Shown here piece after piece: positions 3,448 through 46,543 of a stretch of DNA of 64,000 nucleotides. Origin of the DNA: Croceicoccus sp. YJ47 (lineage in GTDB: Bacteria; Pseudomonadota; Alphaproteobacteria; Sphingomonadales; Sphingomonadaceae); contig NZ_CP067087.1 in NCBI RefSeq assembly GCF_016745095.1, forward strand, positions 248,001-312,000, read 5' to 3'. Positions within the stretch are counted from its first letter, which is position 1; each line of letters starts with the position of its first letter. The notes beneath the pieces are model-generated. The model ran no database searches, was not told where the DNA came from, and saw nothing but the letters and a program-made list of their open reading frames with translations. Both the position numbers and the translations under genes were made by a program.

Positions 3448-4617
3448 TCAGAGCCGGACCGGTTCCCGCCCGCGCAGCACATGGGTACAGCCCAGCGCGG
3501 CGGGGTCGTCCGCATCCGACAATTGCGCGACCGTCTGCCAGCCAATGGCGCGCAGGCGGTCCGCGATGCCGGGATCATAGCCTTCGGGCAGGAAGAGGCG
3601 GTCGGCGCTCTGCGTCCGCGCGCATAGCTGTATCAGCGGATCGGGGTAGAGCGAGAAACCCGTCGCGGCCTCGTCATGGCCGCCCTCCCCGCCGATGCGA
3701 TAGGTGCCGCCCCGGCCCAGCGCGCCACGCAGCCCGTCGGCATAGATTGTGAACCCGAACCAGCTTTGATATTCGAAACCGTGCCGTTCCGACGGGTCGA
3801 GCGTGAGCGCGGCCCGCCCACCGACATGGTCGGCAATCCGGCGCAGCCCCGCAATCCGCGTCGCCAGCGCGCCGCCCGCATCGATCGCGGCCAGCTTCTC
3901 GATCGCGGTGTCGAACGCGCCCGTCGCATAGAGCAGCGGCAGATAATCATGCGCACCGAGCGATGCCAGCCCGCCTGCATCCTTCGCATCGAGTTCGCGC
4001 CGCACCGCCGCCACCTGTTCCGGCGCAAGCGGCAGGGAACCGGCCTACAGGGTTTCGACCAGATCCGGCAGGGTGAAATCGACCGATATGTCCTGCGCGC
4101 CCGCGGCCCGCAGCGCGGCAATGGCGAGGCTCACGCTCTCGCAAGCCGCGGCGACCGTGTCGGTGCCCACGATTTCGGCGCCAATCTGAAGCCGTTCGCG
4201 TTCGGGTTCGAGCCCGTCGCCACGAATGGCAAGCACCTGACCCGCATAGCACAGGCGCAGCGGACGCGCCGCCCCGCGCAGCCCGGTCGAGGCGATGCGC
4301 CCGACCTGCACCGTCATGTCCGAACGCAGCGCCAGCGTGCGCAGCGAAACCGGGTCGGTATAGCGCACCATGCGCCGCGTCCCCGTCCCCGCCATGCGGG
4401 AGGCGAGGCTGCGCTCGAACTCGACCAGTGGCGGCTGCACCATGGCATAGCCGTGCGCGACCATGGTGTCGGTGACCGCGCGGGTAATCTGCACCGCGCT
4501 CGCGGCATGGGGGGGCAGCCGGTCGGCCAGACCTTCGGGCAGAAGATCGGCAGGCAGGAGATCGGCGTCCGGCAGGCTGGCGCCCTGTCGCATGTCGGTG
4601 GCGGCGGTCATCGTCAT
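3448..4617 (-). pseudogene. hisZ: ATP phosphoribosyltransferase regulatory subunit, interrupted by in-frame TAG
   Basis: HisZ is the catalytically dead HisRS-like partner of short-form HisG and is needed for the first step of histidine synthesis. The frame, read through, gives about 389 residues with HisRS-core segments (PLVEFERSL; GTGTRRMVRYTDPVSLRTLA; FGFTIYADGLRG). ATG at 4617 (MTMTAATD) follows a GAAGGG-like site; an open frame extends further upstream but overlaps serA. A TAG stop at 4047-4045 is codon 191, reading ETL-stop-AGSLPL, and both halves stay in the same frame with good family similarity. It is either a sequence error, a recent nonsense mutation or an amber-readthrough site. 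The gene lies 77 bases after serA on the same strand. Confidence 0.88.
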
Positions 4618-4694
4618 TTCCCTTCGTCCCGCGCCCCTAGATGGCGCCGGGGGGAGAGGCAAGCCGCTCCCGCCCGGCCCATCCGCGCATGGGT

Positions 4695-6277
4695 TCAGAA
4701 CGTGAGCGCCCGCACGACGCGCACGCCGGTCAGCTGACACGCGGCGTTCAGCACATCTTCGGGCACCGGATTGTCGACCGAAAGCAGCAGGACAGCCTCG
4801 CCGCCCGCGGCACGCCGGCCAAGGTGGAACGTGCCGATATTGATGCCGTTTTCGCCGAGCAGCGTGCCGATGCGGCCGATGAAACCGGGCTGATCGTCAT
4901 TGACGATATACATCATGTTTCCGTCGAGATCGGCCTCGATCCCGACACCGAAAATATCGACGAGCCGCGGCTCCGCCTTGCCGAAGAGCGTGCCGGCCAC
5001 CGAACGGTCGCCTGCCGAGGTGTCCACCGTCACGCGCACGAGCGTCTGATACACGCCCTCGCGTTCGTTGCGAATTTCGCGCACCTCAAGCCCGCGCTCC
5101 TTCGCCAGGAACGGCGCGTTGACCATGTTCACGCTCTGCGAAAACCGCTTCATGAAGCCGGCAAGCACCGCGCCCGTGATCGGCTTCTGGTTGAGCTGCG
5201 CGGCGGCGCCCTCGACCTCGATGCTGATCTTGGTGAGATTGTCGTGCGCCAGCTGCCCGATGAGGCTGCCCAGCTTTTCGGCAAGCGCCATGTAGGGGCG
5301 CAACCGCGGCGCTTCCTCCGCCGAAAGCGACGGCATGTTGAGCGCGTTGGTCACCCCGCCATTGACGAGATAATCGCTGAGCTGCTCGGCGACCTGAAGC
5401 GCGACATTGACCTGCGCCTCGGTCGTGCTGGCGCCCAGATGCGGGGTGCAGATGAAATTGGCTGTGCCGAACAGCGGGTTTTCCTTCGCCGGTTCCTCCT
5501 CGAACACGTCGAGCGCGGCGCCCGCGACATGGCCCGATTCGAGCGCGGCCTTCAACGCGGCTTCGTCGATGAGCCCGCCGCGCGCGCAATTGACGATGCG
5601 CACGCCCTTCTTCGTCTTGGCAAGAGCTTCGGCGGAGAGGATATTGCGCGTCTCGTCGGTCAGCGGCGTGTGCAGCGTGATGAAATCCGCACGCTTGAGC
5701 AATTCGTCGAGGTCCACCTTCTCCACGCCCATGTCGATCGCGCGTTCGGCGGTCAGGAACGGATCATAGGCGACGATCTTCATCTTGAGGCCGAGTGCGC
5801 GGCTGGCGACGATGGCGCCGATATTGCCCGCCCCGATCAGGCCCAGCGTCTTGCCCGTGACCTCGACGCCCATGAAGCGGTTCTTTTCCCACTTGCCGGC
5901 TTGCGTGGATTCGTTCGCCTCCGGAATCTGGCGGGCGAGCGCCATCATCATCGCGATGGCATGTTCCGCGGTCGTGATCGAATTGCCGAACGGGGTGTTC
6001 ATCACCACGACGCCCTTGGCCGAAGCGGCGGGAATATCGACATTGTCGACACCGATGCCGGCGCGGTAATAACCTTGAGATTGGTCGCCGCCTCGAGGAT
6101 TTCGGGCGTGACCTTCGTGGAGGAACGGATGGCGAGGCCGTCATACTGGCCGATGATCGCCTTCAATTCGTCGGGCGTCTGGCCGGTGATGACATCGACG
6201 TCACAGCCGCGCTCCTCGAAAATGCGGGCGGCGTTGGGATCCATCTTGTCGGAAATCAGGACTTTGGGCTTGGCCAT
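4695..6277 (-). pseudogene. serA: D-3-phosphoglycerate dehydrogenase, one-base frameshift
   Basis: SerA oxidises 3-phosphoglycerate to 3-phosphohydroxypyruvate, the first step of serine synthesis. The restored product is about 527 residues: an N-terminal substrate domain, the NAD fold GLIGAGNIGAIVASRALG, catalytic-region TPLTDETRN and APHLGAST-type segment CTPHLGASTTEAQ, and a C-terminal ASB plus ACT domain (GFIGRIGTLLGENGINIGTF). The frame breaks near 6066: after NLKVIT the sequence should continue RAGIGVDNVDIPAAS, but one C appears to be missing from a short C run. ATG at 6277 (MAKPKVLIS) fits the family. Sequencing error is likely because the rest is fully conserved. Confidence 0.92.
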
Positions 6278-6343
6278 GGGAATGGTCCTCGTGTCTGTGC
6301 CGGGTGCGCGTCGGCGCGGCAATAACCGGCGAGAATATCAGGG

Positions 6344-6374
6344 AAAAAAGGTGCGGCTTTGTGGTCGCCGCACC
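6344..6374 (-). terminator. Rho-independent terminator after serC
   Basis: On the minus strand a perfect 8-bp stem, GGTGCGGC pairing with GCCGCACC around a 9-base loop, is followed directly by six T residues. It lies ten bases after the serC stop and about 67 bases before the serA start. It should end most serC transcripts, so serA would need its own promoter, or the hairpin acts as an attenuator within a serC-serA unit. Confidence 0.85.
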
Positions 6375-6383
6375 GCAAGAGAA

Positions 6384-7505
6384 TTACGCCTTCAGCGCAT
6401 TCCAGGCATAATCGAGCCAGGGGCCGAGCGCCTCGATATCGGCGGTGTCGACCGTCGCCCCGCACCAGATGCGCAGGCCCGGCGGTGCATCGCGATACCC
6501 CGCGATGTCATAGGCCGCGCCCTCATCCTCCAGCAATTTGGCGAAGGATTTGATGAAAGCCGCGTCCGCGCCCTCGACCGTGAGACAGACCGAGGTGTTG
6601 GACCGGATCGCCGGATCGACGACCAGATGACCGAGCCATGCGCGGTCCTGCACGATGGTGTCGAGCGCGGCGGCATTGGCATTGGCGCGGCGCTTCATCT
6701 CGGCGGCGCCGCCGATGGATTTCGCCCATTCGAGCGAGAAGATCGCATCCTCGACCGCGAGCATCGAGGGCGTGTTGATCGTCTCGCCCTTGAAAATGCC
6801 CTCGATCAGCTTGCCGCCCTTGGTCATGCGGAACACTTTGGGCAGCGGCCATTCGGGCGTGTAGCTTTCCAGCCGTTCGACCGCGCGCGGACCGAGGATC
6901 AGCACGCCATGCGCACCCTCGCCGCCCATCGCCTTCTGCCAGCTGAAGGTCGCGACATCCACCTTGGTCCAGTCGATGTCCTGCGCGAAAACGGCGCTGG
7001 TCGCGTCGGCAAAGCTCAGCCCTTCGCGATCGTCGGGAATCCAGTCGGCGCCCGGCACGCGCACGCCCGAGGTCGTCCCGTTCCAGGTGAACAGCACGTC
7101 ATGCGACCAGTCCACCGCGGACAGGTCGGGAATCTCGCCATAGTCGGCGCGCATCACGGTCGGGTCGATTTTCAGCTGCTTGACCGCATCGGTGACCCAG
7201 CCTTCGCCAAAGCTTTCCCACGCCAGCGTCGTCACGGGCCGCGCGCCCAGCATCGTCCACATCGCCATTTCGTAGGCGCCCGTATCGGAGCCCGGCACGA
7301 TGCCGATGCGATGCGTGTCGGGCAGGTTCAGCACCTCGCGCATCAGGTCGATGCAATACGCGAGACGCGCCTTGCCGATCTTCGAGCGGTGCGAACGGCC
7401 GAGCGATCTGCTGTCGAGTTTGGAGGCATCCCATACCGGCGGCTTTGCGCAGGGGCCGGATGAGAAAAAGGGACGCTGCGGGAGCGTCGGCTTGGTATCG
7501 GTCAT
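6384..7505 (-). CDS. serC: Phosphoserine aminotransferase
   Basis: PLP enzyme that converts 3-phosphohydroxypyruvate and glutamate to phosphoserine, the second step of serine synthesis, and also acts in PLP biosynthesis. The product is 373 residues. The PLP lysine lies in TFSWQKAMGGEGAHG; SSGPCAKPP near the N-terminus and RSHRSKIGKARL are typical of the alphaproteobacterial long form. ATG at 7505 (MTDTKPTLPQ) is chosen because a strong AAAGGAGAG site precedes it by seven bases; the longer open frame lacks support. It shares a 176-base divergent upstream region with the extensin-like lipoprotein gene. Ends in TAA and is followed by a terminator. Confidence 0.95.
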   Translation of the reverse strand: MTDTKPTLPQRPFFSSGPCAKPPVWDASKLDSRSLGRSHRSKIGKARLAYCIDLMREVLNLPDTHRIGIVPGSDTGAYEMAMWTMLGARPVTTLAWESFGEGWVTDAVKQLKIDPTVMRADYGEIPDLSAVDWSHDVLFTWNGTTSGVRVPGADWIPDDREGLSFADATSAVFAQDIDWTKVDVATFSWQKAMGGEGAHGVLILGPRAVERLESYTPEWPLPKVFRMTKGGKLIEGIFKGETINTPSMLAVEDAIFSLEWAKSIGGAAEMKRRANANAAALDTIVQDRAWLGHLVVDPAIRSNTSVCLTVEGADAAFIKSFAKLLEDEGAAYDIAGYRDAPPGLRIWCGATVDTADIEALGPWLDYAWNALKA

Positions 7506-7681
7506 GTATTCTCTCCTTTCAGAGAGCTCGCGCGGCGTTGGGACCGCGTGGCCCGTCGGCGGCACTACAGCGTGCGCCGGCCAAGTCAAGCGGTGGGGTG
7601 CGCCTGTGTGAAATTATCGTTCACCGACAATGCGGCGAATGGCGCATTGGCGTCGCGGAGCGGTTGTTATAGGGAGCACAT

Positions 7682-8371
7682 ATGTCGAACCGGGTCCCGC
7701 CAATGAAGTTCCGCCGCCTGCCGTGTATCAGCGTCGCCATGGCGCTTTTGCTGTCCGCCTGCGCCGGCGATGCGCCCGCGCCGTCGCGCGATACGCGCGG
7801 AACCGGCACGGCCAGCGGCGCACAGGGCGATGCGAACGTGCGCCAATGCCGCGCCTTGCTGGGCGATGCCGGCGTCGCCTTCACCCCGGCGCAGGATCTG
7901 TTCGCGGGCAAGGGCTGCGACAGCACCAATGCGGTCTATCTGCAAAGCCTGCCGAGCGATGATTTGCGCATGTCGCTGTCGAATCTCGACCGGGTGTACT
8001 GCCCGCTTGCCGACAGTTTCGCCGGATGGGCCCGCTATGGCGTCAATCGCGCGGCGGAGCAGATCATGGGCAGCCCGGTGACGAAGATCGAGACTTTCGG
8101 AAGCTATTCCTGCCGCAATGTCGCAGGGACCGGGCGGCGTTCTGCGCACTCCAACGCGCAGGCGATCGACATTTCCGCCTTCGTCCTCGCCGATGGGCGG
8201 CGTGTGACGGTGCTCGACGGGTGGAACGGTTCGCGCGCAGAACGCGAATTTCTGCGCGCCGTGCATCAAAGCGCTTGCAAACGGTTCGGCACGACGCTCG
8301 GCCCGGACTATAACGCGGCGCATCGCAATCATTTTCACGTCGAGCCGGGCGGCGGCGGCTTCTGCCGCTAG
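7682..8371 (+). CDS. Extensin-like C-terminal domain lipoprotein
   Basis: A 229-residue predicted lipoprotein: a short charged N-terminus, a hydrophobic stretch and the lipobox LLSAC with Cys27 (Cys20 if the second ATG at 7703 is used). The rest matches the extensin-like C-terminal family common in alphaproteobacteria: an ETFGSYSCRN segment, SAHSNAQAIDIS (His and Asp that resemble the metal site of D-Ala-D-Ala carboxypeptidase/VanY-like folds), and NAAHRNHFHV near the end. A role in cell-wall or envelope maintenance is inferred from this resemblance and is not proven. Terminates at TAG directly after FCR, the expected family end. Confidence 0.85.
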   Translation: MSNRVPPMKFRRLPCISVAMALLLSACAGDAPAPSRDTRGTGTASGAQGDANVRQCRALLGDAGVAFTPAQDLFAGKGCDSTNAVYLQSLPSDDLRMSLSNLDRVYCPLADSFAGWARYGVNRAAEQIMGSPVTKIETFGSYSCRNVAGTGRRSAHSNAQAIDISAFVLADGRRVTVLDGWNGSRAEREFLRAVHQSACKRFGTTLGPDYNAAHRNHFHVEPGGGGFCR

Positions 8372-8425
8372 GCCTGAATCGCGTAAACGCCGCATCCTCC
8401 CGATTTCCCGCTCCCGGAGCATAGA

Positions 8426-8998
8426 ATGGACGCTTTCCTCACATCGACACTGGTGGTCGCCCTCGCCGAGATCGGTGACAAGACGATGCTGCTGGCGATC
8501 GTGCTCGCCACCCGGTTCCGGCGACCTTTCGCCATTGCAGCGGGGATATTCCTCGCCACGATCGCCAATCATTTCCTCGCGGCGCTGCTCGGTGCGACGG
8601 CCGCGGCATGGCTCGACAGCGAGTGGTTTCGCTATGGCGTGGCGGCGGGTTTCGTGGCGATGGGCCTCTGGACGCTCATCCCCGACACATTTGACGAGGA
8701 TGACGAACCACGTTCGCGCGGCGGGGCGTTCGTGACGACGTTGATCGCGTTTTTCCTCGTCGAAATGGGCGACAAGACGCAGATCGCGACCATCGCGCTG
8801 GGTGCGCAATTCGCGGCGACAGGATGGGTGACCGCGGGCACGACCCTCGGCATGATGATCGCCAATCTTCCGGCAATCTGGCTGGGCGATGCGCTGGTCC
8901 GGCGGGTATCGCTGAAGGTCGTGCGCACCATCGCGGCCGCGCTGTTCCTCGCCATCGGGATCTGGCTTCTCGCGCAGACGGCAGGCTGGCTCCCCTAG
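8426..8998 (+). CDS. TMEM165/GDT1 (UPF0016) family membrane transporter
   Basis: A 190-residue inner-membrane protein with two copies of the family signature E-x-G-D-K-T: AEIGDKTMLLAI in the first half and VEMGDKTQIATI in the second, each followed by hydrophobic helices, with an acidic linker (DTFDEDDEPR) between them. Family members export manganese or exchange calcium/manganese for protons, so metal-ion homeostasis is the likely role. It ends at TAG at 8996-8998. The palindrome CTAG at 8995-8998 also supplies the stop of the convergent acetyltransferase gene. Confidence 0.93.
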   Translation: MDAFLTSTLVVALAEIGDKTMLLAIVLATRFRRPFAIAAGIFLATIANHFLAALLGATAAAWLDSEWFRYGVAAGFVAMGLWTLIPDTFDEDDEPRSRGGAFVTTLIAFFLVEMGDKTQIATIALGAQFAATGWVTAGTTLGMMIANLPAIWLGDALVRRVSLKVVRTIAAALFLAIGIWLLAQTAGWLP

Positions 8999-9504: not shown

Positions 9505-9548
9505 CCGGACAATTTTCGCGCAGCCTGCGCCCCATGGCAAGCGGAATG

Positions 9549-9590
9549 ACCGGGGCGGGCCGGATGCGCTACCCATCCGACCCGCCCGGT
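9549..9590. repeat. Long inverted repeat between regulator and acetyltransferase genes
   Basis: Arms of about 17-18 bases (ACCGGGGCGGGCCGGATG and CATCCGACCCGCCCGGT) flank a 7-base loop, with one mismatch or bulge. It lies in the 112-base gap after the regulator stop at 9617, so on the minus strand it could end the regulator transcript. There is no T tract, so a classical intrinsic terminator is unlikely; it may be an RNA-stabilising or factor-assisted end. Confidence 0.55.
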
Positions 9591-11248: not shown

Positions 11249-12061
11249 TTACTGGTCCACCGTCTGCTGCGCGACGGCCAATTCGACGGTCATGGAATCG
11301 GTGTGTCCGCCGCTCGAAATGCCGGTGATCGGCGCGGCTTCGCGGTAATCGCGCCCGGTTGCCACGCGGACATAGCGCGCATCGGGGCTGATCTGGTTCG
11401 AGATGTCGAACCCGACCCAGCCGAGCCCCGCCACGAATGCCTCGGCCCAGGCGTGGCCCGCTTCCTGATCGACGCGGTCGTTCATCATCAGATAGCCGCT
11501 GACATAGCGGGCCGGCACCTTCATGATACGCGCGCAGCCCAGGAATATATGGGCATGGTCCTGACACACGCCGGTCCCCGCGCCGAGCGCCTCCGACGCG
11601 GTGGTCTGCGACGTGGTCGTGCCCGTTTCGTAGCGCACCGCATCGATGATCGCGGCCTAAAGCGCGTGCATCGTTTCCAGCGTATCATCCCCGCCCGACA
11701 CACGGTCGACAAGCGCGCGCATTGCCGCATCGGGCCGGGTCAGGTCGGTCTGCGTATTGAAGTGCCACAGCGGCAGATCGCCCGCATGGCGCCCGATGAT
11801 CCCCGCCTTGTCGTCGGTATCGACCATGCCCTTGCACGCGATCTCGACATGGGTGACGCCTGGATCGACCTCGACGAGCACGGTCGTGTTGCAATTGTGA
11901 TCCTCGTAGCTCAGCTGTTCGCGCGCGCCGTCATATTCCATGTTCCAGGACAATACCTCCTGCCCGCTCGTCGACTTGGGCGTGAGGCGCAGACGTTGCA
12001 GGCCATGGACGACCGGCTCGTCGAAATCGTAACGCGTGCGGTGCGAGATGGAGAGACGCAT
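11249..12061 (-). pseudogene. Transglutaminase-like protein of the Anbu locus, interrupted by in-frame TAG
   Basis: Read through, this is a 270-residue protein with an N-terminal bacterial transglutaminase beta domain (ISHRTRYDFDEPV; LRLTPKSTSGQ) and a C-terminal transglutaminase/protease-like core. The Cys-His-Asp triad is intact: GVCQDHAHIF, AGHAWAEAF and GFDISN. A TAG at 11659-11657 is codon 135, reading MHAL-stop-AAIIDAVRYETG, exactly between the two domains; both halves are in frame. A GTG shortly downstream could in principle start the C-terminal half, but no ribosome site is evident. It lies between the alpha-E and Anbu genes, so loss of function would break the locus. Ends in TAA. Confidence 0.88.
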
Positions 12062-12076: not shown

Positions 12077-13030
12077 CTATTCGACGAAGCGGTAATCGTG
12101 CTGAATCGCGGCGGCGATGCGTTGATTCTGCGCGACGAAGCCGGTGAGGAATTCGTGCAGGCCCTGCTCGAATATGCTGGAGACGGTCTGATCGTGGAGC
12201 GCGACATCGGCGCCGCGCATCAATTCGTGCGCCTCGACCTCGCCCCCGTATTGCAGCGCCAGGTTGCCGAGATTGGCGCGCAGCTTTTCGTAACAGAAGC
12301 TGAGCGAGCGGGGGAAACGCCCGTCGAGCACCAGGAAATCGACGATGCCGCGCGCGTCCATCTGTCCGGCGTTGAGCCAGCGATAGGCCCGTTCGGCACC
12401 GAGCGAGCGCAGGATCGTCTCCCACTGCACATTGTCGAGGCTCGACCCGACATAGGACAGCGAGGGCAGCAACACGTAATATTTGACGTCGACGATCCGG
12501 GCGGTGTTGTCCGCCCGTTCGAGGAATTGCCCGATGCGCCCGAAATTGAAGATGTCGTTGCGCAGCATTCCGCCGAGCATCGCGCCGCGCACCTGCGTGG
12601 TCTGATGCCGGATGAGGTCGAGCACATCGTTGAGATTGGTGTTGCGCACCGGTAAGCGCAGCGCATCGCGCACCGTCATCCAGCTTTCGTTGACCGCCTC
12701 CCACAATTCGCGGGTGATCGCGGCGCGCACGCCCCGGGCATTGTTGCGTGCCATCTCCAGGATGGCGAGCACGCTCGTATGGTTGTCCGGATCGCGCAGG
12801 ATGAAATTATAGACGTTTGGACCGGAATAATCGTCGCGCCCGTATTTCTCCTCGAACGCGGGCTGAAGGCCGGCGGTCACGATGACGGAGCGCCATTCCC
12901 CGCTGCTCACCGTCTTGTCGCGGGTGAGCGCCATGCGAAAGCCCGTGTCGATGAGGCGCGCATAGTTTTCGGCCCGTTCCAGATAGCGGAACATCCAGTA
13001 GATATTGTTCGCAGACCGGCCCAGCATCAA
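12077..13030 (-). CDS. Alpha-E domain protein (DUF403) of the Anbu locus
   Basis: A 317-residue all-helical protein of the alpha-E family, recognisable from LGRSANNIYWMFRYLERAEN at the N-terminus and EARGARTAI-like GVRAAITRELWEAVN in the middle. Alpha-E proteins accompany circularly permuted ATP-grasp enzymes and transglutaminase-like proteins, sometimes fused to them, and are proposed partners in amide-bond formation; no catalytic residues are established. It follows the ATP-grasp gene by 28 bases and precedes the transglutaminase-like gene by 15 bases, so cotranscription is very likely. Ends with TAG after YRFVE, a normal family end, showing that TAG acts as a stop in this operon. Confidence 0.94.
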   Translation of the reverse strand: MMLGRSANNIYWMFRYLERAENYARLIDTGFRMALTRDKTVSSGEWRSVIVTAGLQPAFEEKYGRDDYSGPNVYNFILRDPDNHTSVLAILEMARNNARGVRAAITRELWEAVNESWMTVRDALRLPVRNTNLNDVLDLIRHQTTQVRGAMLGGMLRNDIFNFGRIGQFLERADNTARIVDVKYYVLLPSLSYVGSSLDNVQWETILRSLGAERAYRWLNAGQMDARGIVDFLVLDGRFPRSLSFCYEKLRANLGNLALQYGGEVEAHELMRGADVALHDQTVSSIFEQGLHEFLTGFVAQNQRIAAAIQHDYRFVE

Positions 13031-16073: not shown

Positions 16074-18256
<2,183 letters not shown>

Positions 18257-23082: not shown

Positions 23083-24131
23083 GCCTTTACTCCCGCCCCG
23101 CGCGCCGGTTCCGCATCCGGGTCCAGCGGCCAGCGCGGCCGCGCCACGAAATCGAGCGGATCGCCGCCCGGCTGGACCAGCCCCGCCGCGATCCGCTCCT
23201 GCCCCGCCCAGGCGATCATCGCGGCATTGTCGGTACACAGCGCCATCGGCGGCGCAACGAAACGCAGGCCATGTTGCGCAGCCATACTCTCCAACGCGGC
23301 GCGCAACGACGCATTCGCCGCAACCCCGCCCGCCACGACCAGCGCGGTCATGCCCTCTGCGGTTTGCAGGGCGCGGCCCGTCCGGTCGATCACGCAATCG
23401 AGCGCGGCCTGCTGAAAGCTGGCGGCGATGTCGGCGGGGGCGTGGTCGCCCGTCTGGTGCGCGCGCAGGACGGCGCTCTTCAACCCGGCAAAGGAGAAAT
23501 GCGGCTCCTTCGCGCCTTTCAACGGTCGCGGCAACGGCACGGCGGCGGGGTCGCCCTCTTTCGCCAGACGCTCCACCGCCGGGCCGCCCGGATAGCCGAG
23601 GCCCAATATCTTCGCCGTCTTGTCGAATGCCTCGCCCAGGGCATCGTCGATCGTGGTGGCGAGCTAGCGGTAATCGCCGACGCCGCGCACCTCCAGTATC
23701 TGGCAATGCCCGCCGGATGCGAGCAGCAGCAGATAGGGAAAGGCAAGCTGAGGATCGGCGAGACGCGGGGACAGCGCATGCCCTTCGAGGTGGTTGACCG
23801 CGATCAACGGCTTGTCACCCGCCATCGCCAGCGCCTTTGCCGTGACCAGCCCGACCATCACCCCGCCGATCAGCCCCGGCCCCGCCGTCGCGGCAATCGC
23901 ATCGACATCGGCCAGCGTCATGCCCGCATCGTCGAGCACGCGTTCCACCATCGGGCCGACGACCTCGACATGCGCGCGCGCGGCGATTTCGGGGACGACG
24001 CCGCCGAACGGGCGATGCGCCTCGTCCTGCGACGCGATGGATTGCCCGACGATGGTGCGGTCGGCCCGCACAAGGGCCGCCGCGCTTTCATCGCAGCTGG
24101 ATTCGATACCGAGAACGATTGGCGCCGTCAT
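23079..24131 (-). pseudogene. tsaD: tRNA threonylcarbamoyladenosine transferase, interrupted by in-frame TAG
   Basis: TsaD attaches the threonylcarbamoyl group to A37 of ANN-decoding tRNAs and is essential in most bacteria. The frame gives 350 residues with [14 protein letters not shown], the metal-binding [24 protein letters not shown]-type [10 protein letters not shown] and [10 protein letters not shown], all well conserved. ATG at 24131 ([12 protein letters not shown]) is the family start. TAG at 23666-23664 is codon 156, reading GVGDYR[19 protein letters not shown], in the middle of a conserved block with no loss of frame. A true null is hard to reconcile with viability unless a second copy exists, so error or readthrough is likely. 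Divergent from hemC with 44 bases between. Confidence 0.92.
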
Positions 24132-26835: not shown

Positions 26836-28056
26836 TCAGCGCTGAAGCAGTGTCGGCAGCGTCCCGCTCACCCCGCGCGCCTCGTCCATGAACCAGCGTT
26901 TGAGCGGATTGACCCGCTCGATCGCTCCCATGCCCAGCCTACGCACGGCGGAAGCGGCGCGGCCCGGCACGCCGAAGATCCGCGTCAGCCCGTCGGTCGC
27001 GAGCGACACTGTGAAATCGTCCAATGCGCGCCATTGCTGATAGCGTTTGAGCACCTCTGCGTCCCCCGGCTCCAGCCCCAAACGCATCGCATCGCCCACC
27101 ACCTCGGCCAGCGCCGCAACATCGCGCAAGCCGAGATTGAGCCCCTGCCCCGCGATCGGGTGGATGCCGTGCGCCGCGTCGCCGACGAGCGCGAGCCGGT
27201 GGTCGATGATCGTCGGCGCATGATGAAAGCCGAGCGGATAGGACGACCGCGGGGAGGCCAGTTCCATCGTGCCGAGCAGCGCGCCCATGCGCTTCTCCGC
27301 CTCGGCGAGGAACGCCCGGTCGCCAAGCTTGAGCCAGCCTTCCGCTTCCTTTTCCGCGACCGTCCACACCAGCGCGGTGCGATGCCGCCCATCCGCATCG
27401 TCCAGCATCGGCAAAAGCGCGAACGGCCCTTCGGGATAGAAGATTTCCCACGCCACGTTCCCGTGCGGCTTTTCATGCGCGAGGCCGCAGATGATCGCCC
27501 GGTGACGATAATCCCATTTCGCCATTTTCAGGCCCGCCTCGTCGCGCGTCGGCGACCCGCGCCCTTCCGACCCGACGAGCAGGCTCCCTTCGAAACGCGT
27601 GCCATCGTCGCGCACGGCGGCGACACCATGCGGGCCGCGGTGGCGTTCGGTCACGCGGGAGCGGGGATGAAACGCGATGGCGTCCTCGTCCTGCATCGCG
27701 TCGAACAACGCCTTGCGCAGCTGCCGGTTGGCGAACATGCGGCCAAGGCTGCCCTCGCCCGTTTCGGGCCGGAAATGCAGTTCGCCGGGTTTGAGCTGAT
27801 CGCTGACCGCGATGGATTCGATCGGGCAGCCGAACGGTTCGAGCAAAGGCGCGACGCCGATATTGGCGAACATGTTCCAGCTCGCCGTGGAAATGGCCGA
27901 CGCGCGCCCGTCGAACCCCTCGGCAAGCTGCGTCTCGGGATCGGCCGCGTCGAGGACATGGCTCGTGATGCCCGCCTTTGCGAGCGCGAGCGCCAGGCTG
28001 GTCCCGACAAGGCCGCCGCCCAGGATCACCACATCGCGCCTGTCTGTCTTCGTCAT
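26836..28056 (-). CDS. UbiH/UbiF-family FAD-dependent hydroxylase
   Basis: Flavin monooxygenase of ubiquinone biosynthesis, 406 residues. The ADP-binding motif VILGGGLVGTSLALALAKAG is at about 9-28; the second FAD segment LVGDAAHGIHPIAGQGLNLG is complete, as are DGRASAIS and a SYPLGF-type segment. Which ring position is hydroxylated cannot be assigned from sequence, since UbiH, UbiF, UbiL and UbiI overlap. ATG at 28056 (MTKTDRRDVVILG) follows GAACGAGCG; a longer frame is not supported. It converges on the mitofilin-like gene (four bases between) and is divergent from the DsbD-type gene across 145 bases. Confidence 0.93.
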   Translation of the reverse strand: MTKTDRRDVVILGGGLVGTSLALALAKAGITSHVLDAADPETQLAEGFDGRASAISTASWNMFANIGVAPLLEPFGCPIESIAVSDQLKPGELHFRPETGEGSLGRMFANRQLRKALFDAMQDEDAIAFHPRSRVTERHRGPHGVAAVRDDGTRFEGSLLVGSEGRGSPTRDEAGLKMAKWDYRHRAIICGLAHEKPHGNVAWEIFYPEGPFALLPMLDDADGRHRTALVWTVAEKEAEGWLKLGDRAFLAEAEKRMGALLGTMELASPRSSYPLGFHHAPTIIDHRLALVGDAAHGIHPIAGQGLNLGLRDVAALAEVVGDAMRLGLEPGDAEVLKRYQQWRALDDFTVSLATDGLTRIFGVPGRAASAVRRLGMGAIERVNPLKRWFMDEARGVSGTLPTLLQR

Positions 28057-32128: not shown

Positions 32129-34062
32129 CCCAGCAAACGCTCCACGATGAGATCGGCTACTTCCTCCGGCGAAAGCGCGGTGGTGTCGATGCGGATTTCC
32201 GGGTTTTCCGGCGCTTCGTAAGGGCTGTCGATCCCGGTGAAATTCTTCAGCGTCCCGGCCCGCGCCTTGGCATAGAGGCCCTTCACGTCGCGCTCCTCCG
32301 CCACGGAAAGCGGCGTGTCGATGAACACTTCCATGAACTCGCCCTCCTCCATCATCGCGCGCACCATGTCGCGTTCGGCCCGGAAGGGGGAGATGAAGGC
32401 GGTGATCACGATCAGTCCGGCATCGGTCATCAACCGGGCGACCTCGCCCACGCGGCGCACATTCTCGATCCGGTCGGCGTCGGTAAAGCCGAGATCGCGG
32501 TTCAGCCCGTGCCGCACATTGTCCCCGTCGAGGAGGAAGCTGTGCCGGTTCATGCGGTGCAGCCGTTTTTCAACGAGGTTCGCGATCGTCGATTTGCCCG
32601 ATCCCGAAAGCCCGGTAAACCACAGCACCTTCGGCGCCTGGTTCTTCAGATCGGCGCGGGCCTCGCGCGTGATGTCGAGCGCCTGCCAATGGACGTTCTG
32701 CGAGCGGCGCAGCGCGAAATGCAGCATGCCTGCCGCGACCGTGCGGTTCGTCATCTTGTCGATGAGCACGAACCCGCCGAGCGCCGGGCTCACCCGGTCC
32801 TGCTCGTCGCGATAGGGGACGAAGGCGATGGGCCGTTCTGTGGCAAGTTCCGCGACCCCGATTTCGTTGAGATTCAGCGTCTTGGCCGCCATGTGGTCCA
32901 TGCTGTTCACATCGACGGTGTATTTCGGCTCCTGCACGCTGGCCGATACCTGCTGCGTGCCGATCTTCATCCAGTAGGACCGGCTAGGCAACATCGCATC
33001 GTCCGCCATCCACACGATCGTGGCCTCGAACTGATCCGCGGTTTCGGGCGGTGCATCGGCGGCGGCGATCACGCTGCCGCGCGAACAATCGACCTCGTCG
33101 GCGAGCGTGAGCGTCACCGACTGCCCGACCTGCGCCTCGTCCAGATCACCGTCCAGCGTGACGATGCGGGCGATGTTCGTGGTCTTGCCCGACGGCACGA
33201 TCCGGACCGGATCGCCGGGGCGCACGGTGCCCGCGCTGATCAACCCGGAAAATCCGCGAAAGTCGAGATTGGGCCGGTTCACCCACTGCACGGGCATGCG
33301 AAACGGCTTGGCAAGGTCGCTATCGCTCGACAATTCGACCGTTTCGAGGTGGTCCATGAGCGACGGCCCCGCATACCACGGCGTATTTTCGGACGGCGCG
33401 GTGACATTGTCGCCCTTGAAGCCCGAAATCGGAATGGCGGTGAAATCCTCGATCCCGATGGTCTTCGCAAATTCGCGGTAATCCGCGACGATGGCATCGA
33501 ACGTCGCCTGATCGTAATCGACGAGATCCATCTTGTTCACGGCCAGCACGACATTACGGATGCCGACCAGATGGGCGAGATAGCTGTGCCGGCGGGTCTG
33601 CACCAGCACACCCTTGCGCGCATCGACGAGGATCACGGCGAGATCGGCGGTCGATGCGCCGGTGACCATGTTGCGGGTGTATTGTTCGTGGCCGGGCGTG
33701 TCGGCGACGATGAACTTGCGTTTCTGCGTGGTGAAGAAGCGATAGGCGACATCGATGGTGATGCCCTGCTCCCGCTCCGCCGCGAGGCCGTCGACGAGCA
33801 GGGCGAAATCGATCTCCTGCCCCTGCGTACCGACGCGGCGGGAATCGCTTTCGAGCGCCTCCAGCTGATCCTCGAAGATCATCTTGGAATCATAGAGCAA
33901 CCGGTAGATCAGCGTCGATTTCCCGTCGTCCACGCTGCCGCAGGTGATGAACCGCAGCATCGTTTTATGCTGATGCGATTCCAGATAGGCGTCGATGTCC
34001 TTCGCGATGAGCGCGTCGGTCTCGTACACGGGGGCATCGGTGGTGTCGTGCGCGTCGGCCAT
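32122..34062 (-). CDS. cysN/cysC: Bifunctional sulfate adenylyltransferase subunit 1 / adenylylsulfate kinase
   Basis: A 646-residue fusion that first drives APS formation by GTP hydrolysis (CysN) and then phosphorylates APS to PAPS (CysC). The N-terminal EF-Tu-like GTPase has [31 protein letters not shown] and AVNKMDLV; the C-terminal kinase, from about residue 450, has [16 protein letters not shown] and [16 protein letters not shown]. The fusion is common in proteobacteria. Its ATG overlaps the cysD stop and its TAA overlaps the cysQ start, so the three genes are translationally coupled. Confidence 0.96.
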
Positions 34063-41274: not shown

Positions 41275-41477
41275 GGCTGATGTGGCCCCTTTCATCGGAT
41301 GCTTTCGTTTTGGGCAACAAGCCGCCCCCGCCCGGTGTTCCCCGGTGGCCGCGGCGATACGCCGCCCGGCGCGATCATGCCGCACGCCCCGTCGCACCCC
41401 TGGGGCGCCCTGACCGACGGGCGGAACACGATGGCGGCGCGGCGGCTTCTATCGTTAACAGGTATCGGAGATTGCAC

Positions 41478-42134
41478 ATGAAATCGGACAACAGGGACCT
41501 TGGCGCGCTGGCCGGGGCGGGCATAGCGCTTGGCGCGGCGGCAGTGGGCGCATGGCTCTCCACACGAGAGAAGAAGCATCACCCCGACAGCGCGCCGGGG
41601 TGGACGCAGCGCCGCAATTTCGGCGATTACGAGGTCGTCGGCCGCACCGTCACCATCCGCAAGCCGCGCACGGAGCTGTTCGCGTTCTGGCGGGAGTTTC
41701 AGAACCTCCCCCAATTCATGGAAAACGTGGAGAAAATCACCCCCAAGGGAAGCGACGGGCGCGCCGTGTGGACCATAAAGGCGCCCGCCGGACAATCCGT
41801 CGACATCGAAACCGAGATCGCGCGCGAAGAGCAGGACACGCTCATCGCATGGCGCTCCGTCGAAGGGTCGGACATCGACACCGAAGGGCGCGTCACTTTC
41901 GAGGATGCACCGGGGGACCGCGGCACGCGCGTCTCGCTCATCATCGCGTACAAGGCGCCCGGCGGCAAGATCGGCCAGGCCATTGCCAAGCTGTTCATGC
42001 GAGAACCCGAGGTGCAGGCGCGCCACGATCTCAAACGTTTCAAGATGCTGATGGAAACAGGCGAAGTCAGCACCAGCGCGCGCCGCAAGGACCAGACCCG
42101 CGCCGCCCAATATCAGCAGGAGAATGCACGATGA
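41478..42134 (+). CDS. SRPBCC/cyclase-dehydrase family protein with N-terminal membrane helix
   Basis: 218 residues: a glycine/alanine-rich hydrophobic segment at about 8-28 (ALAGAGIALGAAAVGAW), then a START/SRPBCC ligand-binding fold (VVGRTVTIRKPRTELFAFWRE; NLPQFMENVEKI; DTLIAWRSVEGSDIDTEGRV). The family binds hydrophobic ligands; related proteins next to dehydrogenases appear in stress-related gene groups. It overlaps the next gene by ATGA (42131-42134), so translation of SRPBCC, alcohol dehydrogenase and short-chain dehydrogenase is coupled. The ligand is unknown. Confidence 0.87.
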   Translation: MKSDNRDLGALAGAGIALGAAAVGAWLSTREKKHHPDSAPGWTQRRNFGDYEVVGRTVTIRKPRTELFAFWREFQNLPQFMENVEKITPKGSDGRAVWTIKAPAGQSVDIETEIAREEQDTLIAWRSVEGSDIDTEGRVTFEDAPGDRGTRVSLIIAYKAPGGKIGQAIAKLFMREPEVQARHDLKRFKMLMETGEVSTSARRKDQTRAAQYQQENAR

Positions 42135-43312
42135 AGGCTCTCACCTGGCATGGAAAGCACGACGTGCGCGTCGATACGGTCGACGATCCCGAAATCGTGA
42201 ACAGCCGCGACGCCATCATCAAGGTCACCAGCACCGCGATCTGCGGCTCCGACCTGCACCTTTACGACGGGGTCATCCCGATGGTGCAGTCGGGCGACAT
42301 ACTCGGCCATGAATTCATGGGCGAGGTCGTGGAAACCGGCGCCGACAGCACGTTGAAAAAAGGGCAACGCGTCGTCGTTCCCTTCACCATTTCGTGCGGC
42401 GGCTGTTTCCACTGCAACATTCAGCAATACAGCTGCTGTGAAAATTCCAACCCGGCGGAGAAACAGGACGCATCGGCAACGCTTTACGGGCATCCGATGG
42501 CGGGGCTGTTCGGCTATTCCCACCTCACCGGCGGGTATTCGGGCGGGCAGGCGGAATATGTCCGCGTGCCCTACTCCGATTTCGGGCCGATCGTCGTTCC
42601 CGACCATCTCGACGATGACAAGGTGCTCTTCCTCTCCGACATTCTGCCGACCGGCTGGATGGGGGCGGAAAATGCGGAGATCAATCCCGACGATACGGTC
42701 GCGGTGTGGGGTTGCGGCCCGGTCGGGCTGTTCGCCATTCAATCGGCCATCGTGATGGGCGCATCGAAGGTGATTGCCATCGACCATTATCCCCACCGGC
42801 TAGCGCTTGCGAAAAAGCTGGGCGCCGACACGATCAATTTTCGCGAAACCGACGTGCGCGAAGCCTTGATGGAAATGTCGGGCGGGATCGGCGTGGACGC
42901 GGTGATCGACGCCGTCGGCATGGAGGCGCACGGCTTTGCCTATGACAACATGATGGACATGGTGAAGCAGACCGTGGGCATCGGTGCCGACCGGGCCAGC
43001 GCGTTGAAACAGGCGATTTTGGCGGTGCGTCCGGGCGGGCGCGTGTCGATCCCCGGCGTCTATGGCGGGATGACCGACAAATGGCCGCTGGGCGCGATGA
43101 TGGAAAAGGGGCTGCAACTGCGCGGCGGGCAGACGCACGTGCAACGCTATACGAAGGATCTCCTCGCCAAGATCGAGGATGGCACGCTCGACACCACCTT
43201 CCTCATCAGCCACCGGCTTCCCCTTTCCCAGGCGGCGGACGGCTACAGGAATTTTCACGACAATCAGAACGAATGGACGAAAGTCGTCCTCAAACCCGGA
43301 ATGGAGGCCTGA
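42131..43312 (+). CDS. Zinc-dependent alcohol dehydrogenase
   Basis: A 393-residue MDR-family dehydrogenase close to the glutathione-independent formaldehyde/threonine dehydrogenase type. Catalytic zinc site: CGSDLHLYDG and GHEFMGEV; structural-zinc cysteines in SCGGCFHCNIQQYSCCE; NAD fold VAVWGCGPVGLFAIQSAIVMG. It starts inside the preceding gene (ATGA) and is followed two bases later by the SDR gene. Aldehyde or long-chain alcohol oxidation is likely; the exact substrate is not readable. Confidence 0.92.
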   Translation: MKALTWHGKHDVRVDTVDDPEIVNSRDAIIKVTSTAICGSDLHLYDGVIPMVQSGDILGHEFMGEVVETGADSTLKKGQRVVVPFTISCGGCFHCNIQQYSCCENSNPAEKQDASATLYGHPMAGLFGYSHLTGGYSGGQAEYVRVPYSDFGPIVVPDHLDDDKVLFLSDILPTGWMGAENAEINPDDTVAVWGCGPVGLFAIQSAIVMGASKVIAIDHYPHRLALAKKLGADTINFRETDVREALMEMSGGIGVDAVIDAVGMEAHGFAYDNMMDMVKQTVGIGADRASALKQAILAVRPGGRVSIPGVYGGMTDKWPLGAMMEKGLQLRGGQTHVQRYTKDLLAKIEDGTLDTTFLISHRLPLSQAADGYRNFHDNQNEWTKVVLKPGMEA

Positions 43313-43314
43313 TC

Positions 43315-44118
43315 ATGGCGAAGGACATCGACAAATTGCACGGGCTGGTGGTGATCACCGGCGCGTCGAGCGGGATCGGGCAGGAACTGGCGAAGCTTGC
43401 GGCGAAGGACGGCTGCGACCTGATCCTCGCCGCGGACCGCGACATGGGCGAAACCGAGGCCATCGTGAAACAGCATGGCGCCGCGTCGATCGCGACCGTC
43501 ATGGGCGACCTTGCCACGCGGGACGGGATCATGGCGCTGATGACCGAAATCGGCGACCGGCCGGTGGATTTCCTGCTCGCCAATGCAGGGCACGGCCTGG
43601 GGCACGCCTTCCTCGATCAGGAGTGGAAGGACATCGCGCATGTCATCCACACCAATATCACCGGCACGACCGCGCTGATCTATTACATCGGGAAGCGGAT
43701 GCGCGAACGCGATGCGGGCCGGATCCTCGTCACCGGGTCCATCGCGGGCCATTTGCCCGGCGCGTATCAACTCGTCTATAATTCGACGAAGGCCTATATC
43801 GACGATTTCTGTTTCGGCCTTCGCAACGAATTGAAGGACACCAATGTCACGATTAGCTGCCTGATGCCCGGCGTGACCGATACGCAATTCTTCGACCGCG
43901 CGAACATGGAAGATACAGGCGCCGGACAGTCCGACAGCAAGGCCGACCCCGCCAAGGTGGCGAAGGATGGGTACGAGGCCCTGCTCGAAGGGGACGCGCA
44001 TGTGGTGTCGGGCTTCATGAACAAGGTTCAGGACATGTTCGCCAATGTTATTCCCGATACGATGCTGGCCGAAATGCACCGCAAGATGGCCAAGCCCAAA
44101 AAGGAACACGCCGATTGA
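43315..44118 (+). CDS. Short-chain dehydrogenase/reductase
   Basis: A 267-residue classical SDR. Cofactor motif TGASSGIG at about 16-23, the NAG of LLANAGHG, catalytic Ser in VTGSIAGHLPG and the Tyr-x-x-x-Lys YNSTK are intact, and there is a C-terminal segment with a hydrophobic tail and basic end KPKKEHAD. It is third in the SRPBCC-ADH-SDR run and precedes the MpaB-type gene by 27 bases. Substrate unknown. Confidence 0.93.
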   Translation: MAKDIDKLHGLVVITGASSGIGQELAKLAAKDGCDLILAADRDMGETEAIVKQHGAASIATVMGDLATRDGIMALMTEIGDRPVDFLLANAGHGLGHAFLDQEWKDIAHVIHTNITGTTALIYYIGKRMRERDAGRILVTGSIAGHLPGAYQLVYNSTKAYIDDFCFGLRNELKDTNVTISCLMPGVTDTQFFDRANMEDTGAGQSDSKADPAKVAKDGYEALLEGDAHVVSGFMNKVQDMFANVIPDTMLAEMHRKMAKPKKEHAD

Positions 44119-44145
44119 CGACCCCCCCGCCATGATCGCACCCCG

Positions 44146-45012
44146 ATGGTGAGAGCGCGCCGCAAAGCCGCGCCCGCCGCACCCACTGCGGTCGTCAAAT
44201 CCATGCTCCGCGCGCAGGTTCGCGCCGTGTTCAACGACGCGAGCCGCGGGGAAACGCCGGTCATCCGGTCCGACACGGCGATATTCCCGCCCGGTTCGGT
44301 CATTCGCGCGGTCCATGCCGATGTCGTGTCGATGATGGTCGGCGGCATGGCCGCTTTGTTGTTACAGATGCTGCACCCCGCGGCGCTTCGCGGCGTGCTC
44401 GACCATTCGGATTTTCGCGCCGACATGCTCGGTCGGCTGCGGCGGACGGCGCGTTTCATCGCCATCACCACCTATGCGGATCGCACCGAGGCGGAGGCCG
44501 CGATCGACCGGGTTCGCCGCATCCATCTGCGCGTGACCGGAACGCTGGCGGACGGGACGGGCTATCGCGCGTCCGATCCGCGCCTGCTCGCCTGGGTCCA
44601 TGTGTGCGAGGCGCTGTGCTTTCTCGATGCGTATATCCGCTATGTCGATCCGCGGATGAGCGCCAAGGATCAGGATATCTATTTCGCGCAGGCGGCCCAT
44701 GTCGCCCGCGCGCTGGGCGCCGATCCGGTGCCGGACACGCGCGCCGCGGCAGAGGCGTTGCTGGCCTCGTTTCGCGGCGAGCTTGCCGTGCTGCCCGAAA
44801 CGCGGGAGGTCGCCGATCTCGTGCTCACGCCGGCGGCTGGCAATCCCGCCTCGGCGGCGCCGCATCGCATGCTTGGCCAAGCGGCGCTCGACCTGTTGCC
44901 GCGATGGGCGCCCGCCATGCTGAACCTGCGACCGGGGCGGCTCATGGCGCTCCCGAACAGGGTCGCGACCTATGCGATGGGCGCGGCGCTCAGGTGGAGC
45001 TTTCGCGAATGA
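44146..45012 (+). CDS. MpaB/latex-clearing-type oxygenase (DUF2236)
   Basis: A 288-residue member of the DUF2236 haem-dependent oxygenase family, which includes latex-clearing protein and fungal MpaB. The recognisable block is VVSMMVGGMAALLLQMLHPAA followed by DFRADMLGRLRRTARFIAITTYADR and VTGTLADGTGYRASDPRLLAW (the Arg and His region). Substrates of bacterial members are mostly unknown; cleavage of isoprenoid or fatty double bonds is one possibility. Position after an SRPBCC protein and two dehydrogenases suggests one oxidative pathway. Ends in TGA. Confidence 0.88.
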   Translation: MVRARRKAAPAAPTAVVKSMLRAQVRAVFNDASRGETPVIRSDTAIFPPGSVIRAVHADVVSMMVGGMAALLLQMLHPAALRGVLDHSDFRADMLGRLRRTARFIAITTYADRTEAEAAIDRVRRIHLRVTGTLADGTGYRASDPRLLAWVHVCEALCFLDAYIRYVDPRMSAKDQDIYFAQAAHVARALGADPVPDTRAAAEALLASFRGELAVLPETREVADLVLTPAAGNPASAAPHRMLGQAALDLLPRWAPAMLNLRPGRLMALPNRVATYAMGAALRWSFRE

Positions 45013-45094
45013 TCGCGTAAGCGGGGCAGATAGGCTGGGGATAGCGGCGCGCGATGGCTTTGGCTGGGACGCGCGGCCCGCTATTGCCCGGCAG

Positions 45095-46543
45095 GTGAGC
45101 AATTCGATCATCATCGGCAGCGACAATCGCGACACGAAGGTTCCCATCGATATCGAGGAATTGCTCGCCACGCGCCTGCTGGTGCAGGGCAATTCGGGTT
45201 CGGGCAAATCGCATCTCCTGCGCCGCCTGCTGGAGGAAAGCGCCGGGCTGGTGCAGCAGGTCGTGATCGATCCGGAGGGCGATTTCGTCACGCTGGCCGA
45301 ACCGTTCGGTCATGTGGTGATCGACGGCGCGGATTACGGCGATACCGAAATCGTGCAGCTTGCCGCCCGCATCCGGCAACATCGCGCGTCGGTCGTGCTC
45401 GCGCTCGACGGGCTGGAGGTCGAGGCGCAGATGCGCTGCGCCGCGATGTTCCTCAATGCCCTGTTCGATGCCCCGCGGGAGGAATGGTACCCCGCGCTCG
45501 TCGTCGTGGACGAGGCGCAGATGTTCGCCCCGGCACAGGGCGGCGACGTGAGCGACGAGGCCCGCCGCCTCTCGCTTTCGGCGATGACGAACCTGATGTG
45601 CCGGGGGCGCAAGCGCGGTCTTGCCGGGGTCATCGCGACGCAGCGGCTGGCGAAACTTGCCAAGAATGTCGCGGCCTAGGCGTCCAATTTCCTGATGGGG
45701 CGGACATTCCTCGATATCGACATGGTGCGCGCCGCCGACCTGCTCGGCATGGAACGGCGGCAGGCGGAGCAGATCCGCGACCTCGACCGCGGGATGTTCC
45801 TCGGGCTGGGTCCTGCGATCTCCCGCCGCCCCGTATCGGTCCGCATCGGGAGCGTGCGCACCGGCACGCGCGGCGCGGCGCCGGGCCTGATGCCGCTCCC
45901 CACCGCTTCGGCAGAAGAAATGGAGGCATTGCTCCACGCCGCGCCGGAAATGCCCGAACCGCCGCCACCCGCCCCGCCACGGCCCAGCCCGAGCGAGCAG
46001 GCCGACGCGCTGATCGAACGCATCGCGATACAGGACTCTGCGCCGGACCCGACCGAAGATCAGGCCGACGATGCGCCCGACATCGCCCCGATCATCGCCG
46101 AAGTGCTGGGCGAAATGGCGGCCGAGCCCGATAGCGCGTTTCAGACATCCGCCGCCCTGTTCCAGGATTTCACCCTGCGATGCCGGGCGCGCCGGGCGCC
46201 GCTTCACGGGCTCGACATGACGCAGTTCAATCGCCGCTTCGCCATGGCGCAGGCGGGCATCGACGTGGACAACGACGATCACGCCGCGCTCGTCGCGCTC
46301 TCGCGCAGCGTGCCCGACGACATGCTGGCCCCGTTCCTCGCCATCGCGCGCGCGGCGCAGGACGAGGCGCCCTGCCCCGACGACGACACGCTCGCCCGCA
46401 TCTACGGCACGAGCAGCGCGGGCCGCATCCGCCGCCTCCTCGACAATTTCGAGCGTATGGAGCTGCTCGTCATCCGCACCGATTTTTCGGGCCGCCGCAC
46501 CATCACTGTGCCAAAGCTCGGCCTGACGACGGCGGCGGTCTGA
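45095..46543 (+). pseudogene. HerA-like ATPase (helicase HerA-type), interrupted by in-frame TAG
   Basis: Read through, 482 residues of the HerA/FtsK-type ATPase family: Walker A VQGNSGSGKSHLLR, Walker B ALVVVDEAQMFAP and the arginine-finger block RGRKRGLAGVIATQRLAKLA. The TAG at 45677-45679 is codon 195, reading LAKNVAA-stop-ASNFLMGRTFLDIDM, directly in the most conserved part; relatives as I recall them have Glu here (one base from TAG). The C-terminal half is helical with a proline-rich linker (PPPPAPPRPS) and a winged-helix-like end (FERMELLVIRTDF). Best start is GTG at 45095. A stand-alone bacterial homologue without NurA nearby. Confidence 0.87.

What the first reader, a model, noticed from the sequence alone, without database searches (positions are those of the whole stretch)
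4045..45679. Four conserved genes each interrupted by one in-frame TAG, never TAA or TGA
hisZ (4047-4045), the Anbu-locus transglutaminase gene (11659-11657), tsaD (23666-23664) and the HerA-like gene (45677-45679) are full length except for one TAG each. In all four the frame, family similarity and catalytic residues continue after it. Three are followed by G (TAGG). At least ten other genes here end at TAG, so TAG also works as a stop. Either a systematic base error or lineage nonsense mutations explain it, or a suppressor tRNA/readthrough lets both meanings coexist. All four being the same codon is suggestive but is a small sample.
Basis: partly seen in the sequence, partly recalled or inferred. 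Interest (0 to 1): 0.7.

Follow-up and report, generated by a model that had tools for sequence, protein, structure and literature searches.

The report
Sequencing errors at methylated DNA motifs
The four in-frame TAG stops are almost certainly errors in the deposited sequence, made where the bacterium probably methylates its own DNA, and not a second meaning of a stop codon.

Summary
The four in-frame TAGs are in the sequence as described, but they are very probably consensus errors at methylated motifs. The two nearest relatives held carry sense codons at all four sites: S, S, R, E. Over about 471 kb aligned to the nearest one (G013), this assembly has word-for-word replacements seen 0 times the other way: GATTCG>GATCTG 15 of 206, GCCGGC>GTAAGC 15 of 1238, CGGCCGA>CGGCCTA 10 of 212. 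Of eight G/C-only palindromic hexamers, only CGGCCG and GCCGGC stand out. The chromosome encodes a NotI-family and a NaeI-family endonuclease, each beside a C5-methyltransferase, and a CcrM-like enzyme: families whose recalled or published sites are GCGGCCGC (core CGGCCG), GCCGGC and GANTC. The changes ignore selection: 57 of 82 alter the protein against 3040 of 13491 elsewhere; one alters the T-loop of the only tRNA-Tyr found. No CUA tRNA was found among 45 matches and RF1 is intact. "Never TAA or TGA" fails in a larger sample. Nanopore errors at methylated motifs are published. Platform, reads and methylation itself could not be checked here.

The parts
4045..4047 (-). In-frame TAG in hisZ (matched stretch 3451-4617); motif-linked, CGGCCG context in G013
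11657..11659 (-). In-frame TAG in the transglutaminase-like gene (11252-12061); motif-linked, CGGCCG context in G013
23664..23666 (-). In-frame TAG in tsaD (matched stretch 23100-24131); motif-linked, GCCGGC context in G013
45677..45679 (+). In-frame TAG in the HerA-like gene (matched stretch 45098-46540); assembly reads CGGCCTA here; CGGCCGA origin inferred, since G013 and G003 have a different synonymous codon before it
1046..1046 (+). Other motif-linked difference from G013 (CGGCCG), new TA
7408..7409 (+). GATTCG in G013 read as GATCTG here (GANTC site)
12653..12655 (+). Motif-linked triple change with new TAA on the plus strand (overlapping CGGCCG and GCCGGC); not in frame of the gene on the minus strand
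16208..16209 (+). Motif-linked difference (overlapping CGGCCG and GCCGGC), new TA
26940..26941 (+). Motif-linked difference (GCCGGC), new TA
32158..32159 (+). Motif-linked difference (CGGCCG), new TA
32985..32986 (+). Motif-linked difference (CGGCCG), new TA
33905..33906 (+). Motif-linked difference (CGGCCG), new TA
45018..45020 (+). Motif-linked difference (GCCGGC), new TAA on the plus strand

Best explanation
The four TAGs are consensus errors of the assembly, not bases of the organism. The genome is probably methylated at CGGCCG (C5-methyltransferase beside a NotI-family endonuclease), at GCCGGC (C5-methyltransferase beside a NaeI-family endonuclease) and at GANTC (CcrM-like enzyme). Signal-based base calling, most likely Oxford Nanopore on native DNA without adequate short-read polishing, misreads roughly 6 to 10 per cent of the two hexamers, mostly as words that contain TA (CGGCCTA, CGGTAAG, CGGCTAG, GTAAGC, GCTAGC), and some GATTCG as GATCTG. 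Where the TA falls in a suitable frame it gives TAG or TAA, and CGGCCTA read on the other strand is TAGGCCG, which explains TAG followed by G. Shown here: the sites, the motif specificity, the presence of the enzyme families, the blindness to selection. Inferred: the methylation itself, the enzymes' exact sites, the platform, the origin of the herA site, and that reads would show sense codons.
For: Sense codons at all four sites in G013 and G003. Motif-bound word replacements seen 0 times in the other direction (second region; totals and tests). Of 8 G/C-only palindromic hexamers, new TA within the word plus one base each side: CGGCCG 43 of 435 here against 2 of 360 in G013, GCCGGC 36 of 618 against 3 of 557, the other six 0-5 against 0-4; one-letter neighbours near background. 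Nine isolated CCG>TAA triple changes against 0. NotI family PF12183 E=4.3e-102 and NaeI family PF09126 E=2.4e-58, each beside a C5-methyltransferase, and CcrM as best NCBIfam match; NaeI family in 1 of 14 genus genomes; NotI family full-length in 1 of 14, with weak partial matches in 2 others. Motif-linked codon changes: 25 synonymous, 50 nonsynonymous, 7 stops; others 10451, 3027, 13 (p=2.6e-19). tRNA-Tyr T-loop altered by the GATTCG word. CGGCCTA errors: 10 of 105 sites as written on the assembly's plus strand, 0 of 107 on the minus. Precedent in print: PMC12710330, PMC10687267, PMC12392509.
Against: No reads, methylome or platform record were available. The herA site is not CGGCCG in G013 or G003. 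13 of 20 in-frame stop differences are not motif-flagged, and the same kind of count gives 6 stops in 193 genes in the G013 direction against 10 in 209, so total stop counts alone would not prove anything. In the second region GATTCG>GATCTG fell to 1 of 71 and GTAAGC to 1 of 476. GATTCA, GATTCC and GATTCT show 0, so GANTC alone is not sufficient, and a few TCG>CTG changes occur outside GATTCG (6 of the 20 listed). GCGGCCGC, the recalled NotI site, was hit in 0 of 42 non-overlapping places, so the NotI-family enzyme would have to have a CGGCCG-like site. PMC12392509 says methylated motifs mostly did not cause errors in its data (passage). CGGCCG and GCCGGC also differ more often without TA (any change 178 of 435 against 103 of 360; 193 of 618 against 132 of 557), so TA words are most but not all of the excess.
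Confidence: 0.96

Rival explanations
1. Suppression or readthrough: TAG is read as an amino acid in some genes while also ending others.
For: Four conserved genes, one of them the only tsaD match, carry TAG, and downstream sequence is conserved.
Against: 0 of 45 tRNA matches with CUA (list probably incomplete because some stretches read N); RF1 intact; S, S, R, E in relatives; the same word changes also give TAA and missense.
Confidence: 0.01
2. Ordinary lineage nonsense mutations: the genes are young pseudogenes.
For: A single base difference from G013 in hisZ and transglutaminase codons.
Against: tsaD has one match in the genome and is usually essential (recalled); the same words recur at other CGGCCG/GCCGGC sites with 0 in G013; triple changes CCG>TAA nine times.
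Confidence: 0.01
3. Real mutations driven by methylation or by restriction-site avoidance at CGGCCG and GCCGGC.
For: Motif specificity and resident restriction-modification families.
Against: The words are not C-to-T deaminations except GCTAGC; they ignore codon constraint; CGGCCTA appears only on the assembly's plus strand in both regions; a T-loop base of the only tRNA-Tyr found is hit.
Confidence: 0.01
4. A systematic error of another kind (other platform, polishing software or reference-based correction) that happens to act on these words.
For: Platform unknown; plus-strand bias points to the consensus step.
Against: The affected words match three methyltransferase systems of the same genome.
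Confidence: 0.03

Closest known systems
Modification-mediated (methylation-induced) consensus errors in nanopore bacterial assemblies
   Same: Errors bound to probably methylated motifs in a genome with matching methyltransferases; GANTC and short restriction-type palindromes are named for agrobacterial long-read assemblies (PMC12710330, section 6 read; also PMC10687267, abstract and passages; PMC12392509 and PMC11610573, passages).
   Different: Here the errors are recurrent two- and three-base words, mostly containing TA, that create in-frame stops; the passages I read in PMC11610573 describe positions varying between two bases. Platform not confirmed here.
Stop-codon suppression / TAG reassignment
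   Same: Conserved genes interrupted by TAG while TAG also ends genes.
   Different: No CUA tRNA found, RF1 intact, different residues in relatives, sense codons in the closest relatives, and the same error words elsewhere give TAA or missense.
Type II restriction-modification systems of the NotI and NaeI endonuclease families
   Same: Both endonuclease families lie next to C5-methyltransferase genes on this chromosome.
   Different: They explain the errors only through the methylation they imply; their specificity was inferred, not measured, and the affected word CGGCCG is shorter than the recalled NotI site.

Membership tests
Modification-mediated consensus error | Errors concentrated in specific short motifs | tested here: met
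   CGGCCG and GCCGGC stand out; six other G/C palindromes and near variants at or near background
Modification-mediated consensus error | Matching methyltransferases encoded in the genome | tested here: met
   At family level only: C5-methyltransferase beside NotI family, C5-methyltransferase beside NaeI family, CcrM-like (CcrM model score below its cut-off)
Modification-mediated consensus error | Motifs actually methylated | not testable with these tools
   No methylome or raw signal
Modification-mediated consensus error | Changes blind to coding constraint | tested here: met
   57 of 82 protein-altering against 3040 of 13491; tRNA-Tyr T-loop altered
Modification-mediated consensus error | Replicates in a region not used to find the words | tested here: met
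   all 8 error words tested at least once in G000 and 0 in G013, but GATTCG (1 of 71) and GTAAGC (1 of 476) at much lower rates; three GATTC controls 0
Modification-mediated consensus error | Native nanopore reads ambiguous at the sites | not testable with these tools
   No reads or platform record available
Stop-codon suppression / dual-use TAG | tRNA with CUA anticodon | tested here: not met
   0 of 45 matches; caveat: some stretches read N
Stop-codon suppression / dual-use TAG | Weakened or missing RF1 | tested here: not met
   prfA match 472.6 bits, over cut-off, no stop inside
Stop-codon suppression / dual-use TAG | One consistent residue at the sites in relatives | tested here: not met
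   S, S, R, E in G013 and G003
Stop-codon suppression / dual-use TAG | TAG alone, not TAA or TGA, inside genes | tested here: not met
   10 TAG, 4 TAA, 6 TGA in the sample; TAA e.g. at 393388, 395256, 432896

The most novel reading that the evidence does not exclude
Some of the motif-linked changes are real: methylated CGGCCG and GCCGGC sites in this lineage suffer multi-base mutations to TA-containing words, and the resulting TAGs are tolerated by readthrough without a dedicated tRNA.
Probability: 0.01. Interest if true: 0.9.

Novelty: not a real feature. Interest (0 to 1): 0.2.

Why it matters
It shows how methylation-linked base-calling errors can imitate a change in the genetic code in a finished-looking genome. 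It also shows that comparing such an assembly with a close relative can point to the methylated motifs and to candidate enzymes without any raw data. Proteins predicted from this record should be treated with care: 57 of 82 motif-linked codon changes in the filtered genes alter the protein.

Tried and rejected
A suppressor tRNA was sought: the one weak match that ARAGORN did not call (106836-106906) is a degenerate tRNA-like stretch with CCC in its anticodon loop. A simple C-to-T explanation (deamination or C/T miscalls) fits GCCGGC>GCTAGC but not the other words. A plain count of in-frame stops by type did not discriminate: the first gene set was full of shadow frames (22 stops here, 31 in G013), and the filtered set still has 6 stops in 193 genes in the G013 direction against 10 in 209 here. 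Genes that failed the filters were left out of those counts: 52 of 261 and 64 of 257; one search printed only the kept 319. The transglutaminase gene was missed by my gene finder. Frameshifted genes were 11 of 209 against 5 of 193, too few to lean on. The '1 TAG' or '1 TAA' flags for herA in G005, G010 and G011 sit two codons from the end of the match and are read as the genes' own terminal stops. The excess of adjacent-change runs on this branch (98 against 47) is partly due to a longer branch (1442 against 1165 substitutions) and to the divergent 54-59 kb stretch. Searches for internal stops caused by methylation errors listed nothing on point among the rows shown; searches for NotI/EagI and NaeI gave no paper in which I saw the CGGCCG specificity.
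Full report
Observation. The window is 248001-312000 of a single 3.35 Mb contig, completeness 99.91. Each of the four genes is reported with one TAG inside, and tsaD has one match in this genome. Contexts in frame are CTG TAG GCC, CTT TAG GCC, CGC TAG CTC and GCC TAG GCG.

Relatives. The genus searches cover 14 genomes, this one included. G013 (97-99% protein identity in the four genes) and G003 (94-97%) have no stop inside: hisZ TCG, transglutaminase TCG, tsaD CGG and AGG, herA GAG. The residues are therefore S, S, R and E. The stop flags for herA in G005, G010 and G011 are at the ends of the genes. hisZ and herA matches were missing in one of the 14 genomes, the fragmented G012.

No suppressor. 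45 tRNA matches were listed. ARAGORN gives an anticodon for 44 of 45, none of them CUA. The other is degenerate, with CCC in the loop. RF1 is present and uninterrupted. Caveat: some stretches of the held genome read N (one run of 2500 in the sample), and tRNA-Ile(GAT) and tRNA-Ala(TGC) are not among the matches, so the list is probably incomplete.

The changes are words. A three-way alignment of 58.8 kb showed more runs of adjacent changes on this branch (98) than on G013's (47); several in the conserved part end in TA after CGG or CCGG. Over 302 kb aligned to G013 the following occur here and 0 times in the opposite comparison: GATTCG>GATCTG 14 of 135 (0 of 121); GCCGGC>GTAAGC 14 of 762 (0 of 702; palindrome counted in both orientations); CGGCCGA>CGGCCTA 6 of 122 (0 of 101); GCCGGC>GCTAGC 3 of 381 (0 of 351); nine isolated CCG>TAA triples (0). 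The hisZ and transglutaminase TAGs are two of the six CGGCCGA sites, and tsaD is one of the three GCTAGC sites.

Second region. In 168 kb aligned elsewhere, not used to find the words, all eight error words tested occur at least once here and 0 times in G013, some at lower rates: GATTCG 1 of 71, GTAAGC 1 of 476, CGGCCTA 4 of 90, GCTAGC 2 of 238, CGGCTAG 3 of 107, CGGTA 9 of 1260. Combined Fisher p-values for GATTCG, GTAAGC and CGGCCTA are 6.5e-05, 7.3e-05 and 0.003.

Motif specificity. Across both regions, new TA in or next to the word: CGGCCG 43 of 435 here against 2 of 360 in G013; GCCGGC 36 of 618 against 3 of 557. The other six G/C-only palindromic hexamers gave 0-5 against 0-4. Excluding places where the two motifs overlap: 28 of 361 against 1 of 307, and 22 of 545 against 1 of 505. 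One-letter neighbours stay near background, the largest being GCCGGT 7 of 465 against 2 of 495. GATTC was hit only before G. GCGGCCGC, the recalled NotI site, was hit in 0 of 42 non-overlapping places, so the affected word is CGGCCG in other flanks. Double changes that make TA number 85 here, 51 of them at the two hexamers, against 29 and 2 in G013; so 34 of the 85 are not explained by the motifs as G013 shows them.

Enzymes. A C5-methyltransferase gene at 1.144 Mb directly follows a NotI-family endonuclease gene, another at 0.603 Mb directly precedes a NaeI-family endonuclease gene, and a CcrM-like adenine methyltransferase lies at 2.619 Mb (CcrM is the best NCBIfam match but below that model's cut-off). 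The NaeI family is found in 1 of 14 genus genomes. The NotI family is over the cut-off in 3 of 14, full-length only here (342 bits) and partial in two others (28 bits). That GANTC is methylated in many Alphaproteobacteria is stated in PMC12710330 (section 6). That NaeI cuts GCCGGC, NotI GCGGCCGC and EagI CGGCCG, and that EagI belongs near NotI, is recalled; the passage on NaeI in the review PMC4081073 prints its site in a form that looks like a misprint.

Blind to selection. In 319 filtered genes (120,926 codons) motif-linked codon changes are 25 synonymous, 50 nonsynonymous and 7 stops; the rest are 10451, 3027 and 13 (p=2.6e-19). The GATTCG word also alters the T-loop of the only tRNA-Tyr in the list: GGTTCAGATCC here, GGTTCGAATCC in G013. 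CGGCCGA>CGGCCTA occurs in 10 of 105 places as written on the assembly's plus strand and 0 of 107 on the minus strand, over both regions; CGGCTAG behaves alike (6 of 146 against 0 of 115), while GTAAGC, CGGTA and GATCTG occur on both strands.

Why TAG. The error words at the two hexamers contain TA, so they can yield TAG or TAA but not TGA. CGGCCTA read on the other strand is TAGGCCG, hence TAG followed by G. Of the 7 motif-flagged stops 6 are TAG and 1 is TAA; the 13 unflagged are 4 TAG, 3 TAA and 6 TGA, four of them within the first 33 codons of a predicted gene. The same method gives 6 stops in 193 genes in the G013 direction, so the background is real. The herA site is among the unflagged because G013 and G003 carry GCGGCGGAGG; one genus member has GCGGCCGAGG and two have GCGGCCGAAG, so its CGGCCGA origin is inferred.

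Literature. [quoted passage not shown] PMC10687267 reports nanopore genomes of low quality tied to strain-specific motifs (abstract and passages). PMC12392509 links two errors to GANTC in two alphaproteobacteria, but adds that methylated motifs mostly caused no error (passages). PMC11610573 describes ambiguous positions that differ by strand (passages). That this assembly is nanopore-based is my inference.

Verdict. The TAGs are most likely methylation-linked consensus errors.

Noticed in passing
G000:C1:485048-485130 (locus L111): The only tRNA-Tyr found has an altered T-loop (GGTTCAGATCC; G013 has GGTTCGAATCC), a further case of the GATTCG word error.
   Followed up: yes
L154 399-2610 and L157 1477-3408: Two type II restriction-modification pairs (NotI family and NaeI family, each with a C5-methyltransferase); NaeI family in 1 of 14 genus genomes, full-length NotI family in 1 of 14.
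   Followed up: partly
L105 2001-2071 (G000:C1:106836-106906): Degenerate tRNA-like sequence (31.2 bits) with CCC in its anticodon loop, possibly a remnant left by an integrated element.
   Followed up: partly
L159 (G000:C1:2969711-2969989): A third, weak C5-methyltransferase match near an S24-peptidase (phage-repressor-like) gene.
   Followed up: no
window 54300-59270: Much denser differences from G013 and G003 than the rest of the window, on both branches; looks like a fast-evolving or recombined gene.
   Followed up: no
G000 whole genome: tRNA-Ile(GAT) and tRNA-Ala(TGC) are not among the 45 matches; perhaps in withheld stretches (one run of 2500 N at 560001).
   Followed up: no
G000:C1 stretches compared with G013 (from 248001 and from 2519037): The CGGCCTA and CGGCTAG errors appear only on the assembly's plus strand, other error words on both; presumably a feature of the consensus step.
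   Followed up: partly
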